DNA from: Batillaria attramentaria
Taxonomy: Eukaryota > Mollusca > Gastropoda > Batillariidae
Assembly (NCBI GenBank): GCA_018292915.2
Contig: JACVVK020000061.1
Location: forward strand, 1,357,501-1,421,500
Direction: 5' to 3'
Length of the DNA: 64,000 nt
The notes beneath the pieces are model-generated. The model had not been told where the DNA came from, did not search any database, and saw nothing but the letters and a program-made list of their open reading frames with translations. The first letter of the stretch is position 1. Every line of letters starts with the position of its first letter. Shown one piece after another: positions 5,648 through 63,780 of the stretch. A program made the position numbers and the translations under genes.

Positions 5648-5821
5648 GGGGAGCCGGGGTGGTCGAATGGTAGAGCGTTGGACTTCTAATGCTCGGGTCG
5701 TGAGTTCGATCCCGGCTGGGGCCAAATATTTGTGCTGGCTTTTTCATCGTTGCCCCGTCTTTGATATCACCCTATGTGGTGGAAAAGGACGTTAAACCCC
5801 CAAACACCCACCCACCCACCC
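5648..5821 (+). mobile_element. SINE A, full-length
   Basis: Nearly identical to the copy about 450 bases upstream, in the same orientation. It is flanked by a 12-13-bp duplication GTGTTATT(C)AAAA at 5636-5647 and 5822-5834. The different flank sequences show two separate insertions rather than a segmental duplication. Confidence 0.92.
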
Positions 5822-7867: not shown

Positions 7868-8467
7868 ATAATAATAATAATGAATATTGTATAGGCGCTT
7901 TACCCAGTTTCGTGGGGGAGCCGGGGTGGTCGAATGGTAGAGCGTTGGACTTTTAATGCTCGGGTCGTGAGTTCGATCCCGGCTGGGGCCAAATATTTGT
8001 GCTGGCTTTTTCATCGTTGCCCCGTCTTTGATGTCATCCTATGTGGTGGAAAAGGAAGTTAAACCCCCAAACACCCAAAACCCACCCACCCACCCCCACC
8101 CACCCAATTTCGTGAATCGGCCCAAAGCGCCGCGAATTGAACCCTATACGCACGCTCACGTGAATCACACGCATCCTCTTACACATTGGACATAAACACG
8201 TTACAATCACGTGGTGCGGAGGGTCAGCTCAGCTATTTAAATTTCGGAATTTAGAATTGCATTTATTTTTTCAAATTTGCTGGGCTGAACATTTTCAAAG
8301 CAGAGGGGGAGGACGCCGGAGTACCCGGAGAGAACCCCCGACGATCGGCCCGCCCGAAGGAACGGTGCCACCTCCGAGAAGGAAAAATTCTTTGTCCCGA
8401 GTGGGACTCGATCCCGTGACCTTTCGCACTGGTGACAACTCTCTCAACCACTAGACCTCCAACTGCC
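7868..8467 (-). mobile_element. SINE D, interrupted by SINE A
   Basis: Read on the minus strand it begins with a tRNA-like head at about 8467 (box B-like segment near 8400-8415), passes through the SINE D body and ends in (TTA)n at about 7868-7880. It is split at 7914/8105 by a plus-strand SINE A whose target duplication comes from SINE D sequence. Confidence 0.85.
7915..8104 (+). mobile_element. SINE A inserted into SINE D
   Basis: Full-length SINE A with head, body and (ACCC)n-rich tail. The near-perfect duplication CCCAGTTTCGTG / CCCAATTTCGTG (7903-7914 and 8103-8114) lies within SINE D sequence, so the relative age is clear: SINE A landed after SINE D. Confidence 0.9.
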
Positions 8468-21578: not shown

Positions 21579-22080
21579 GTTTTTTTTTTTTTTTTTTTGG
21601 CTGCCCCAACTCTTTGCCAGCTCCAGTGGTGTTCCTCCCAGGTCACGGGTGGAACCCACGGAGGATTCGGAAGCTGGGACAATTTTTATTATGCATGATG
21701 ATGGAGATGAGGATGATAGTGAGATGATGCTTTGGAGGTCCATGTGGTTTGGGACTGCGAGACAGGGCCGCATTCCACGCTTCCTGTCATAAATATCCCG
21801 GCATTAACCAGGCCCGGGAATTACGGCACCTGCGGTGCCGGCCGTGTATTCATCCACATCATAAGACGTGTCATACTAAGGGAAGCACCCCCAAAGTCGC
21901 ACCCGTGAAGTGGGTGAATCTCGGCTGTGTGGCAACAGCCTCCCCACCGGGCCCATAGCACACCCGCTCTGGGTAGGAGCCGACCTAGGTAGGAAAAATC
22001 CCGCTTGCCTCGGCAGGGATTCGAACCCGGGTCTCCCGGTCCATGATCCGAAGTGCTAACCACTACACTACGGGGGCCGG
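21579..22080 (-). mobile_element. SINE B, full-length
   Basis: Minus-strand copy: poly(T) at 21579-21598 is the reverse-complemented poly(A) tail, and the tRNA-like head ends near 22080 with an intact B box. It agrees closely with the copy at 42.5 kb over its whole length. Confidence 0.88.
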
Positions 22081-24244: not shown

Positions 24245-25790
24245 CTACGCCTCAGCAGTAAGGCCAGTACTGGTACTAATATCAATGATAGTCACAATGC
24301 CAGTCGCAATACCACTGATAGCACCAGTTCTAATAACAGTCCCCCTACCGATGCCATTTCCAACAACGATTTCCAACGTCAGTACCAGTCCCAATACCAG
24401 TCGCAGTACGCAGTAATAGCACCAGTACCAGTTCTGATAACAGTCGGAATAATTCCTGTCCCAGTACCAATACCTGCCCCAGTAACAGTCACACTACCAG
24501 TCCCAATACCAGTAATAGTACCAGTCCCAATAACCGTCCCAACATCAATACCAATACCAGTAATAGCACCACTACCAGTTGTAATAACAGTCGAAATAAC
24601 TCATCAATACCGGCCCCATTAACAGTCACATTAACAGTAATAGTACTAGTCCTAATGCCAGTCGCAATACCAATACCAGACCCAGTAACAGTCACTATAG
24701 CAGTCCTATTACCAGAAATAGTACCAGTCCCAATACCAGTAACAGCACCATGTCGCAATACCAATACCAGTTGTAATAACATTCGAAATAATTCATGTCC
24801 CAATACCAATACCGGCTTCATTAGCAGGCACATTACCAGTAATAGTACCAGTCCTAATGCCAGTCGCAATACCTAATACCAGAAATAGTACCATTACCAG
24901 TCCTAAAACCAGACCCAGTAACAGTTACAATACCAATACTAATACTAGCCCCTATAACAGTAACAATGCCAGTCACAACACCACTGATAGCACCAATTCT
25001 GATATCAGTTCCACTACCAATGCCATTACCAGTAACAGTCCCAACATCAATACCAGTTCCAATACCAGTAATAGCACCAGTGCCAGTTCTAATAACAGTC
25101 GGAGTAATCCAATAACAGTCCCAGTACCAATACTGGCCCCAGTAACAGTCACACTACCAGTCCCAATACCAGTAATAACACCAGTACCAGTTCTAATAAC
25201 AGTCGGAATAATTCATGTCCCAATAACAGTCCCAACGCCAATACCGGTCCCAGTAACAGTCACAATTACAGTCCAAATACCAGACATAGTACCAGTCCCA
25301 GTAACAGTCCCAGTATCAGTACCAGTCACAGTAACAGTCACAATACCAGCCACAAGTAAGTAATAGTCCCAGTCCCAATAACAGTCCCAGCAAGAGTCAC
25401 AATACCATTCCTAATACCAGTAATAGTACCTGTCCCAATTGCAGTCCCAATACCATTACCAGTCCCAGCAAGAGTCACAATACCATTCCTAATACCAGTA
25501 ATAGTACCTGTCCCAATTGCAGTCCCAGTACCAGTACCAGTCCCAGCAACAGTCACAATACCAGCCCTAATACCAGTAATAGTGCCTGTCCCAATAACAG
25601 TCTAAATACCATTAACAGTCCCAGTTACAGTCACAGTACCAGTTCCAATACCAGTAATACTATCAGCACCTACAGTATAGCATAGTATCATCAGTCCTAA
25701 AACCACCCCCAGTGACAGTCCCAATACTATTTTTTTACCAGTACCAGTTCTAAAAATAGTCCCGTTATCAGGCCAAACACTAGTACCAGT
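24245..25790. repeat. Degenerate hexamer array, CCAGTA/CCAATA/ACAGTC type
   Basis: About 1.5 kb of six-base units such as CCAGTA, CCAATA, ACAGTC and AATAGT with irregular order. Open frames across it merely read the hexamer: Val-Pro and Ile-Pro alternations on the plus strand, Thr-Gly alternations on the minus strand. There are stops in all frames and no start context. A near-duplicate ~70-bp block at 25388-25460 and 25461-25530 shows recent local duplication. Confidence 0.9.
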
Positions 25791-26391
25791 AGCAGTGCGG
25801 GCGATACGCTGTCAGCTTTGAATACTATTACTTTGCGTATTTCTGCAGGTGGACTTCATGTAAATTTCAGTGGAATATACCCTTTGTTGGCAGCAGAAGG
25901 CAGAGTTTCTTTCCCGACTTTTCAGCTGCTCACTGGGCGTTTTCTGTCTTGGACTGGCAATGCTAGAATTCGATTCCCCTGACGACGTGAGCCAGACTTT
26001 TGTTGTCCGGTCTTTTAAACAAGGACGTTAGCTCCCCAAAACCCCTTTCCCCGCGCCCAATAAAAATATCCTCTCCAAGAAAAACTAATAATGACTTGAC
26101 GGGCAATGTTGCAAAGCAGCGATTCTCTCTTTGGAGAAGCTACCCAAAAAGCAGAAAGGGAAATTCAATCTTACAACAGGAGTAATAGAAGAAACGTTTC
26201 TTCTCTCTCTCCCTCCGCCCCCCCCCCCTCCCTCTCTCTCCCTCTCTCTCTCTCTTTAATTCCATTTCCCCAAAACATTTCTGCTTACTCTCAATTTCAT
26301 TCACCTATCCGTGTTAGCATTTAGTAATGGTATTTCCGAAATGTCTTTATCACGCTTGTACCCAACCCCATTTTACAATTTCTTCCCTCCC
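25791..26391. other. Sequence upstream of the hammerhead
   Basis: Possible eroded plus-strand SINE A at 25950-26045 (AATTCGATTCCCC, then AACAAGGACGTTAGC). A (TC)n-rich tract lies at 26203-26255. If the ribozyme belongs to a Penelope-like pLTR or retrozyme, its body should lie here or downstream; no coding is visible. Confidence 0.45.
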
Positions 26392-26460
26392 TGTCTTGGC
26401 CTAAGGTGGCTGAGGAGCCGGTGAAATTCCGGCGAAACGCGTCCCGCTAGGGTCAAGACA
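26392..26460 (+). ncRNA. Type I hammerhead ribozyme, complete core
   Basis: Self-cleaving RNA motif. Core strand CTGAGGA (26410-26416, matching CUGANGA) is followed by a perfect 5-bp stem II, GCCGG/CCGGC (26417-26421 with 26429-26433) around a 7-nt loop, then GAAA (26434-26437). Stem III is minimal: A26437-T26442 and C26438-G26441 with a 2-nt loop. The predicted cleavage triplet GTC lies at 26441-26443, so the cut falls after 26443. Stem I pairs GGTGG (26405-26409) with CCGCT (26444-26448), then after a small internal loop CCT with AGG and GTCTTG (26393-26398) with CAAGAC (26454-26459). Minimal stem III and an open stem I are typical of hammerheads in Penelope-like elements and animal retrozymes (known family). 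No reverse transcriptase is visible nearby, so this may be a solo pLTR, a retrozyme monomer or a relic. Confidence 0.85.
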
Positions 26461-26577
26461 ACCCTACAGCCTACCGTACTAAGCACCATTGTCTTGTATG
26501 TCGACGTGAACTTAAACTCGTGTAAAATACCTCTGGATGGGGTTTCTGGGTAAAGTCTGTGCTTTTTTTCCTTACAA

Positions 26578-26751
26578 GGGAGGGTGGGTGTTTGGGGGTT
26601 TAACTTCCTTTTCCACCACATAGGATGACATCAAAGACGGGGCAACGATAAAAAAGCCAGCACAAATATTTGGCCCCAACCGGGATACGAACTCACGACC
26701 CGAGCATTAGAAGTCCAACGCTCTACCATTCGGCCACCCCGGCTCCCCCTC
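26578..26751 (-). mobile_element. SINE A, full-length
   Basis: Minus-strand copy about 120 bases downstream of the hammerhead ribozyme. It is flanked by TTTCCTTACAA (26567-26577 and 26752-26762). Confidence 0.9.
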
Positions 26752-26789
26752 TTTCCTTACAAAGGGAGATTTAATCTTACAAAAGAATT

Positions 26790-27046
26790 AAAAATAATAA
26801 TAATAATAATAATAAGCAAATTAATATAGGCGCTATATATCCCGAATATTTGGCACAAAGCTAAACCCAACACGCACCCTCACGCGAATCACACGCATTC
26901 TCTCACACACTGGACATGACAGTACCCGTAGAGGACCCCCGACGGTCGTCGGTCAGAATGAACGGTGCCACATACGAGAAAGAAAAATTCTTAGCTCCGA
27001 CCTGACCTCTCGCATTGGTAACCAAGTCTTAACCACTTGACCGCCC
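26790..27046 (-). mobile_element. SINE D with internal deletion
   Basis: The tail-side half (GGCGCTATATATCC and CACACGCATTCTCTCACACA landmarks) and the head remain. The middle segment around the GCATTTATTTTTC landmark is missing. Confidence 0.8.
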
Positions 27047-29302: not shown

Positions 29303-29476
29303 GGGTGGGTGGGTGGGTGTTTGGGGGTTTAACGTCCTTTTCCACCACATAGGGTGATATCAAAGACGGGGCAACGATGAAAAAGCCAGCACAACTATTT
29401 GGCCCCAGCCGGGATCGAACTCACGACCCGAGCTTTAGAAGTCCAACGCTCTACCATTCGACCACCCCGGCTCCCC
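29303..29476 (-). mobile_element. SINE A, full-length
   Basis: Minus-strand copy with a perfect 14-bp duplication ACACCAACTCATGA (29289-29302 and 29477-29490). Confidence 0.93.
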
Positions 29477-35406: not shown

Positions 35407-36243
35407 AGTGCCGATGAAACAGTGGTCGGATTACAGCTCGAAAGCTTGCCTAAAGAGGTAGGTCTTTAAATGGGCTTTAAATTGAGTCAGCGTGGGAAGA
35501 TCCCTAATGGTGACAGGTAAAGCGTTCCAGACGGAGGGGGCGGCGTAAGAAAATGAACGATCGCCAGCTGAGTTCAGAGTTGTTCTTGGAACCTTTAACA
35601 GTTTTTCTGATGATGATGGGAGAGTACGGGAGGGCTGGTAGGTTGTAAGTATTGCAGACAGGTACAGAGGGAGAGAGCCATCGAAATGGCGGTAAGCCAG
35701 GGTTGCAATTTTGAATTGGACGCGGAAAGGGATTGGGAGCCTGTGCGGCTGTTTGAGAAGGGGTGTGGCATGGTCTCTTCTGCGTTTTCTAAGAATAAGG
35801 CGAGCGGCGTTGTTTTGCACGCGCTGTAGTCTTTGCATTTGCTCAGAGGAGATTCCATACAGGACAGAATTACAGTAATCTAGCCGGGAAGTAATGCTAG
35901 CATTAACAAGCGTAGCGGCAGCGGTTTCTGACAAGCATGAACGGATGGAGGAGATCCGCCTCTAGGCCATAAAGCATGAGCGACAGACCTGGCTAATGTG
36001 TTCCTCCACGAAAAGCGTCTGGTCAAGAGTGACACCGAGGTACACGACCGAGGGTTTGAACGCTATACTACCACCAGCTATGGACACCGAGTTGCCATCT
36101 ACCTGCTTCAGCCTGTGCTCTGTACCTGCCGGCATGACTTCTCTTAATTTAACCGCTAGACCCCCAACCGCCCCGGCTTTTTTGTGTAAAATTCTGAACA
36201 AAATATTACCATAAACTACCACCTCTACACCTACCGTCAGCAC
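35265..36243 (-). pseudogene. CR1/L2-like LINE, reverse-transcriptase C-terminal fragment
   Basis: Minus-strand non-LTR retrotransposon fragment. The frame 36243-35431 holds the segment just after the catalytic palm (VVYLGVTLDQTLFVEEHI), then SRLDYCNSVLYGIS, RLQRVQNNAARLIL, TLAYRHFDGSLPLYL, DRSFSYAAPSVWNALPVTIR and AHLKTYLFRQAFEL. These blocks mark the thumb and C-terminus of CR1/L2-clade proteins. An in-frame TAG at 35962-35964 breaks it and the YXDD motif is absent (5' truncation). The 3' UTR contains the microsatellite at 35331-35404 and the tail is (TTA)n near 35265. This is the best preserved coding fragment in the window. Confidence 0.9.
35331..35404. repeat. (CA)n microsatellite in a LINE 3' UTR
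   Basis: About 37 units, between the stop codon and tail of the LINE at 35.3-36.2 kb. Confidence 0.98.
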
Positions 36244-63598: not shown

Positions 63599-63773
63599 AG
63601 GTTGGGTGTTGGGTGTTTGGGGGTTTAACGTCCTTTTTCACCACATACGGGTGATATCAAAGACGGGGCAACGATGAAAAAGCCAGCACAAATATTTGGC
63701 CCCAGCAGGGATACGAATTCACGACCCGAGCATTAGAAGTCCAACGCTCTACCATTCGGCCACCCCGGCTCCC
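63599..63773 (-). mobile_element. SINE A whose target duplication seeds a microsatellite
   Basis: Minus-strand, full-length copy. The left duplication CGTACACATACATA is at 63585-63598 and the right one at 63774-63787. The right copy runs directly into the (CATA)n array at 63781-63881, while the left copy is not expanded. Confidence 0.92.
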
Positions 63774-63780
63774 CGTACAC

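What the first reader, a model, noticed from the sequence alone, without database searches (positions are those of the whole stretch)
26392..26460. A complete, apparently active type I hammerhead ribozyme
Seen: CTGAGGA core, perfect 5-bp GCCGG/CCGGC stem II, GAAA, a minimal 2-bp stem III and a GTC cleavage triplet. A bipartite stem I adds GGTGG/CCGCT and GTCTTG/CAAGAC. All invariant core positions are kept although the surroundings are degenerate repeats. Known: minimal-stem-III type I hammerheads occur in Penelope-like elements and in animal retrozymes that make small circular RNAs. Inference: this may be a pLTR remnant or a retrozyme monomer not yet named in this species. No second ribozyme copy lies close enough to prove a dimer.
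Basis: partly seen in the sequence, partly recalled or inferred. Interest (0 to 1): 0.88.

Follow-up and report, generated by a model that had tools for sequence, protein, structure and literature searches.

The report
Self-cutting RNA inside two transposons
The window holds a complete hammerhead motif, predicted to cut its own RNA, in an old copy of a scattered repeat that likely spreads through RNA; the same motif also sits inside a repeat with inverted ends that is likely moved as DNA, a setting for which I found no earlier report.

Summary
The hammerhead is real: core, helix II and a long helix I are present, the window has no second match, and 0 of 60 simulated windows gave one with helices of 5 bp or more. 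It belongs to a dispersed family: 217 exact cores in the 715-Mb genome, reversed-pattern control 0.

The family has two settings. In the window it is a retroposon-like repeat with a fixed 3' end, variable 5' ends and, here, a 31-bp flanking duplication. In 11 of 30 fetched loci the same ribozyme lies inside an element with inverted ends next to TTA or TAA, i.e. a MITE-like DNA transposon. The genome holds 25 exact 'filled' copies and 32 of 'empty' length, whose insides were not seen.

Between the two settings the ribozyme is the least diverged stretch (net 0.017 against 0.097-0.216 outside); its one fixed difference is core position 7, which is free to vary. That suggests selection on the ribozyme.

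Tandem dimers, a hallmark of retrozymes, were absent among 100 listed places. A Penelope origin stays open: the search for its nuclease did not complete. Cleavage is untested. New variant of a known kind.

The parts
26155..26185 (.). left copy of a 31-bp direct repeat (26 of 31 identical) read as the target-site duplication of the hammerhead repeat
   Evidence: score 37; 0 of 210 mismatched 5'/3' flank pairs reach it
26186..26263 (+). pyrimidine-rich stretch between the left duplication and the part that other copies share; origin not explained
26264..26577 (+). body of the hammerhead repeat shared with the other genomic copies
   Evidence: up to 90% identical copies elsewhere in the genome
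26393..26459 (+). type I hammerhead ribozyme, whole fold
   Evidence: least diverged stretch between the two settings
26393..26402 (+). helix I, outer, 5' arm (pairs with 26450-26459)
26405..26409 (+). helix I, inner, 5' arm (pairs with 26444-26448)
26410..26416 (+). catalytic core CUGANGA; 26414 is position 7, G here, T in most other copies listed
26417..26433 (+). helix II GCCGG/CCGGC with loop UGAAAUU
26434..26437 (+). GAAA, second half of the core
26437..26442 (+). minimal helix III: A-U closing the self-complementary loop CGCG (ACGCGU can pair with a second copy)
   Evidence: kept in 14 of 19 retroposon-type and 11 of 11 MITE-type loci
26443..26443 (+). C17; predicted cleavage on its 3' side
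   Evidence: by the hammerhead consensus quoted in PMC3088659
26444..26448 (+). helix I, inner, 3' arm
26450..26459 (+). helix I, outer, 3' arm
26563..26577 (+). 3' end of the repeat, TTTTTTTCCTTACAA, shared in closely similar form by other copies
26578..26750 (-). younger tRNA-derived SINE inserted at the 3' end of the hammerhead repeat, with its own duplication 26567-26580 / 26752-26765
26761..26791 (.). right copy of the 31-bp duplication

Best explanation
The window holds a type I hammerhead motif inside one old copy of a dispersed, non-coding repeat of about 0.4 kb that likely spread by reverse transcription, and whose ribozyme is predicted to cut its own RNA after 26443. Shown: the motif, the family of copies, the fixed 3' end, the flanking duplication of this copy, and the low divergence of the ribozyme between two lineages. 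Inferred: because helix III is a single A-U pair with the self-complementary loop CGCG, cleavage is probably slow in one molecule and faster when two copies pair through ACGCGU, as reported for amphibian hammerheads. All 19 retroposon-type loci contain sequence from both sides of the cut, so their RNA templates were uncut or re-joined there; I favour cleavage followed by ligation, in the manner of animal retrozymes, with a reverse transcriptase supplied in trans. Inferred too: one such repeat landed inside a TWA-targeting MITE-like DNA transposon, which then multiplied the ribozyme as cargo.
For: 217 exact cores, reversed control 0; 41 DNA matches, 40 of 798 candidates scored. Constant 3' end with variable 5' ends. 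Window duplication: 0 of 210 control pairs as good. O/Y net divergence 0.017 in 26393-26459 against 0.153, 0.216 and 0.097 around it; lowest of the 67-nt windows begins at 26392; the only fixed difference inside is 26414 = position 7 (17 O and 11 Y loci). MITE setting: 11 of 30 loci carry AGGCSATGTCACAC ends; all 20 ends present adjoin TTA or TAA, and 7 of 9 loci with both ends have the same triplet on both sides. Arms occur only in those 11 loci among the held sequences, the repeat body in both kinds. 25 filled copies and 32 copies of empty length, controls 0.
Against: No cleavage, RNA or circle was tested. Only 7 of 19 retroposon-type copies keep an intact ribozyme by my criteria (10 of 11 in the MITE). 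Within the O copies alone the ribozyme is not the least variable part (0.121 against 0.085 for 26371-26392). Covariation is weak: 2 pairs with changes on both sides, reached by 58 of 500 shuffles (14 of 23 distinct rows). Duplications were convincing in few copies: of 15 loci, 4 were matched by 0-2 of 210 controls and 11 were within the control range (the 3' end was misplaced for at least L039, whose duplication shows). No tail-to-head unit junction was found in held loci and the genome-wide search for it did not complete. The loci were chosen by similarity to a query that contains the ribozyme.
Confidence: 0.65

Rival explanations
1. The repeat is a Penelope-like element: 5'-shortened copies of a pLTR plus 'tail', whose minimal hammerhead lies shortly before the point where reverse transcription starts.
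For: Minimal hammerheads are the rule in PLEs (PMC6155905). In the Anolis element PAc the hammerhead lies at the start of the ORF, the first 172 nt of the ORF suffice as template and reverse transcription starts internally (PMC11167929); here too the 3' end of copies is fixed, roughly 130 nt after the cut (L063).
Against: No RT or GIY-YIG gene recognised by eye in the 60 longest frames printed from 18 ten-kb loci; the 600 bases read between the only close same-strand pair of hammerheads (C28, 4189 bp apart) hold no frame above 83 codons. No pLTR-ORF-pLTR arrangement was seen. None of this is a search of the genome for PLEs: the PF01541 search did not complete. Helix I here is long and helix II has 5 bp.
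Confidence: 0.22
2. It is a true animal retrozyme, whose tandem source arrays make circular RNAs; the window copy is a single insertion from such a circle.
For: Size, G+C below 0.45 (0.435), type I fold with a palindromic minimal helix III like axolotl HHR_Amex1 (PMC7229834), long target duplication, and copies unbroken across the cut.
Against: 0 of 100 listed exact cores has a same-strand neighbour within 1 kb; no unit junction in held loci; RNA not unusually self-paired. 117 of the 217 places were not listed.
Confidence: 0.2
3. The hammerhead has always been part of the MITE-like DNA transposon, and the TIR-less copies such as the window's are decayed or internally deleted relatives.
For: The youngest, most uniform copies are the MITE ones (92-99% to each other over up to about 800 bp).
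Against: 19 of 30 loci lack both arms, end at the same 3' point, and the window copy has a 31-bp rather than a 3-bp duplication; 32 TIR pairs occur at the length expected without the insert.
Confidence: 0.1
4. A chance or long-dead hammerhead-like sequence with no role.
For: Sub-threshold covariance scores; 12 of 19 retroposon-type copies broken.
Against: Motif statistics, family size and the selective pattern between the lineages. The window copy itself may well be dead as an element.
Confidence: 0.06

Closest known systems
Animal non-LTR retrozymes (Cervera & de la Pena 2020, PMC7229834; parts 1-3 of 6 read)
   Same: Type I hammerhead in a short (170-400 nt) non-coding, low-GC, dispersed retroelement; axolotl HHR_Amex1 also has a one-pair helix III with a palindromic tetraloop and works better as a dimer.
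   Different: There: tandem dimers to multimers, highly self-paired circular RNA. Here: single copies in the list seen, no unusual self-pairing, RNA not examined.
Penelope-like element hammerheads (Cervera & de la Pena 2014 and Lunse et al. 2017, neither held; PMC11167929 and PMC6155905, passages)
   Same: Minimal helix III, retroelement setting, fixed 3' end of genomic copies after the ribozyme.
   Different: No associated RT/GIY-YIG gene seen; long bipartite helix I; small element of about 0.4 kb.
Newt/salamander satellite hammerheads (as described in PMC6155905 and PMC7229834)
   Same: Weak helix III that can be completed by a second copy.
   Different: Dispersed single copies, not satellite arrays.
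PIF/Harbinger-type MITEs (TWA target site recalled; PMC2836001 seen in the listing only)
   Same: Setting Y: terminal inverted repeats, 3-bp TTA/TAA duplications, no coding frame noticed, many near-identical copies.
   Different: Carries a hammerhead repeat; no transposase was searched for.

Membership tests
Type I hammerhead ribozyme | invariant core C3 U4 G5 A6 N7 G8 A9 / G12 A13 A14 A15.1 / U16.1 H17 | tested here: met
Type I hammerhead ribozyme | three helices, helix I open-ended | tested here: met
   helix III is minimal
Type I hammerhead ribozyme | curated covariance-model match | tested here: not met
   best 20.2 bits to RF00008, gathering 48.5; the type I model RF00163 was never shown as best and its genome search had no ringing control. 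The model test is failed, the sequence definition is met
Type I hammerhead ribozyme | self-cleavage after C17 | not testable with these tools
   needs in vitro transcription
Animal non-LTR retrozyme | type I hammerhead in a repeat of about 170-400 bp, G+C below 45-50% | tested here: met
   longest copies about 0.4 kb, G+C 0.435
Animal non-LTR retrozyme | tandem dimers or multimers | tested here: not met
   0 of 100 listed places (of 217) with a same-strand neighbour within 1 kb
Animal non-LTR retrozyme | highly self-paired unit RNA | tested here: not met
   z -0.67 (L063) and 0.08 (L066)
Animal non-LTR retrozyme | circular RNA in tissue | not testable with these tools
   no RNA data
Penelope-like element | RT plus GIY-YIG gene between hammerhead-bearing pLTRs | tested here: inconclusive
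   none recognised by eye; domain search unanswered
PIF/Harbinger-type MITE (setting Y) | terminal inverted repeats | tested here: met
   18-nt arms, 89% complementary; both ends in 9 of 11 loci
PIF/Harbinger-type MITE (setting Y) | 3-bp TWA target duplication | tested here: met
   20 of 20 ends adjoin TTA or TAA; same triplet on both sides in 7 of 9 loci
PIF/Harbinger-type MITE (setting Y) | mobilised by a Harbinger transposase with matching ends | not tested
   no search made

The most novel reading that the evidence does not exclude
A DNA transposon as ribozyme carrier: a TWA-targeting MITE has taken in a hammerhead retroposon and spread intact self-cleaving ribozymes by a DNA route, so that one ribozyme lineage, held under selection, multiplies by both RNA and DNA transposition.
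Probability: 0.55. Interest if true: 0.78.

Novelty: new variant of a known kind. Interest (0 to 1): 0.6.

Why it matters
Animal hammerheads are known from retroelements and satellites. If the second setting holds, a catalytic RNA has crossed into a DNA transposon and is spread without any need for its RNA step, giving a natural experiment: the same ribozyme under selection in one setting and as passenger cargo in the other. It would also mean that insertions in introns or UTRs can bring a self-cutting site into host transcripts. The low divergence of exactly the folded stretch makes it testable whether cleavage is what selection keeps.

Tried and rejected
Retrozyme arrays: no tandem neighbours in the list seen. 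L042 looked like a tandem dimer, but the second copy starts in the middle of the unit directly after the first one's 3' end, so it is read as two adjacent insertions. The C28 pair of hammerheads 4.2 kb apart in one orientation looked like pLTR-ORF-pLTR; the 600 bases read between them show no long frame. Covariation as support for the fold: too weak. Full-length fold as a viroid-like rod: not supported. Viral contigs as a source of relatives: 28 core-pattern matches, 0 with both helices. Using a LINE protein to name the organism: 1200 relatives, 120 listed, no informative names. RF00163 over the genome: uninformative. One search contains one row taken on the wrong strand (L073) and is not used.

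Papers: PMC7229834, parts 1-3 of 6 read; PMC6155905, PMC6466107, PMC11167929, PMC3088659, PMC4918200, PMC8490949, PMC6431247, passages only; others listing only; PMC5785218 and PMC4209133 not held. The statement that I found no hammerhead in a DNA transposon or MITE rests on (6 papers with both terms; 14 papers), of which I looked at passages in three; subscription papers are mostly not held.

Full report
Observation. The window is eukaryotic and unnamed; it is G000:C61:1357501-1421500 of a 715,342,989-base assembly of 863 contigs. It folds with a 10-pair outer and 5-pair inner helix I, a 5-pair helix II and a one-pair helix III closing CGCG; the inner helix I forms in about half of the predicted ensemble and the rest in nearly all. 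It is not expected by chance, though the loose descriptor did give 13 minimal hits in 60 simulated windows. The curated RNA models score it far below their thresholds.

Family. A DNA search with 26270-26566 returned 41 matches; only 40 of 798 first-look candidates were scored, so this is a lower bound. The exact core pattern with the CGCG loop occurs 99 + 118 times, against 0 for the reversed pattern. Of the 100 places listed, 10 have the window's CTGAGGA and 90 CTGATGA; at least two of the 100 (C7:1788380, C114:991338) have unrelated letters in place of helix II and look like chance.

Setting O, to which the window belongs. 19 of the 30 fetched loci carry the repeat without MITE arms. Their 3' ends agree on a form of GTCGATGCTTTTTTCCTTACAAA, their 5' ends differ, and the longest ones reach about 0.4 kb. 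In the window a tRNA-derived SINE sits in this tail, and beyond it lies the right copy of a 31-bp repeat whose left copy is 26155-26185; no control pair of 210 scores as high. Between the left copy and the shared body lie 78 pyrimidine-rich bases that I cannot explain. L032, L035 and L053 (the last low in complexity) are matched by 1-2 of 210 controls, 11 other loci are not above the controls, and L039 has a clean short duplication that one search missed through a wrong 3' end.

Setting Y. In 11 loci the body lies between two arms with inverted ends AGGCSATGTCACAC. Where both ends are present without a later insertion the elements measure 721-791 bp (8 loci; L049 is 1450). All 20 ends adjoin TTA or TAA, with the same triplet on both sides in 7 of 9 loci; L049 and L052 disagree. 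L061 and L067 have a second such element inserted in their right arm at what looks like the same site. The arms were found in no other held sequence (360,636 bases). Genome-wide, 25 places have the ribozyme's second half and the right end at the filled spacing, and 32 have both ends at the spacing expected without the insert; both reversed controls are 0, and none of the 32 coincides with a listed ribozyme. The insides of these 32 were not shown, and the joined-arm search meant to check them did not complete.

Selection. Between 17 O loci and 11 Y loci net divergence is 0.017 in 26393-26459 against 0.153 (26275-26370), 0.216 (26371-26392) and 0.097 (26460-26560); among 67-nt windows taken every 3 nt the lowest starts at 26392; indel differences are 0.025 in the ribozyme against 0.299 and 0.151. 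The only fixed difference within the fold is 26414, position 7, the core position that may be any base; the next ones lie just outside at 26388, 26390, 26460 and 26461. So the source lineages kept the fold while the rest drifted. Limits: the loci were picked by similarity to a query that contains the ribozyme; within O alone the ribozyme (0.121) is more variable than 26371-26392 (0.085); 7 of 19 O and 10 of 11 Y copies are intact, L037 being scored broken for one extra loop base; paired changes are few.

Mechanism. Shown: anatomy, copies, ends, divergence. From established knowledge: such a core cleaves after C17, and hammerheads with a weak palindromic helix III act better as dimers (PMC7229834, PMC6155905). 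Inferred: the repeat's RNA self-cleaves, likely through pairing of two ACGCGU loops; copies spanning the cut come from uncut or re-joined RNA; a reverse transcriptase in trans makes the copies; a MITE later carried one of them. Whether the enzyme is of LINE or Penelope type is open.

Comparison. It works like a retrozyme or Penelope hammerhead but fails two tested retrozyme features (tandem arrays in the list seen, strong self-pairing) and its Penelope membership is inconclusive, so I file it only as a type I hammerhead, by its sequence definition, in a retrozyme-like repeat. The DNA-transposon setting is the unusual part.

Noticed in passing
window 26578-26750 and 16 further stretches with E below 1e-20, e.g. 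7914-8077, 5648-5817, 29307-29476, 63610-63774: A tRNA-derived SINE of about 170 bp, up to 97% identical between copies, extraordinarily dense in this window.
   Followed up: partly
window 22006-22077 (-): tRNA-like sequence: Rfam tRNA 34.3 bits, but ARAGORN cannot assign it and gives a 4-nt anticodon; possibly a SINE head.
   Followed up: no
window 35434-35961 (-): Reading frame with 1200 related proteins at E<=0.001, some annotated PF00078: end of a LINE reverse transcriptase.
   Followed up: no
L061 and L067: The MITE has inserted into its own right arm at what looks like the same TTA in two loci.
   Followed up: partly
L063:4568-4621: Perfect 27+27-nt palindrome in the left MITE arm, shorter or missing in other copies.
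   Followed up: no
G000 places with GTGAAAGTCC, e.g. C5:1773796, C28:633248, C113:1344057: A third ribozyme subgroup with a changed loop II, sometimes with a mismatch in helix II; its setting could not be read.
   Followed up: no
window 26186-26263: Pyrimidine-rich 78 bases between duplication and repeat body, absent from other copies.
   Followed up: no
window 24448-25685: Long degenerate array of CCAGTA/CCAATA-like units just upstream of the repeat.
   Followed up: no
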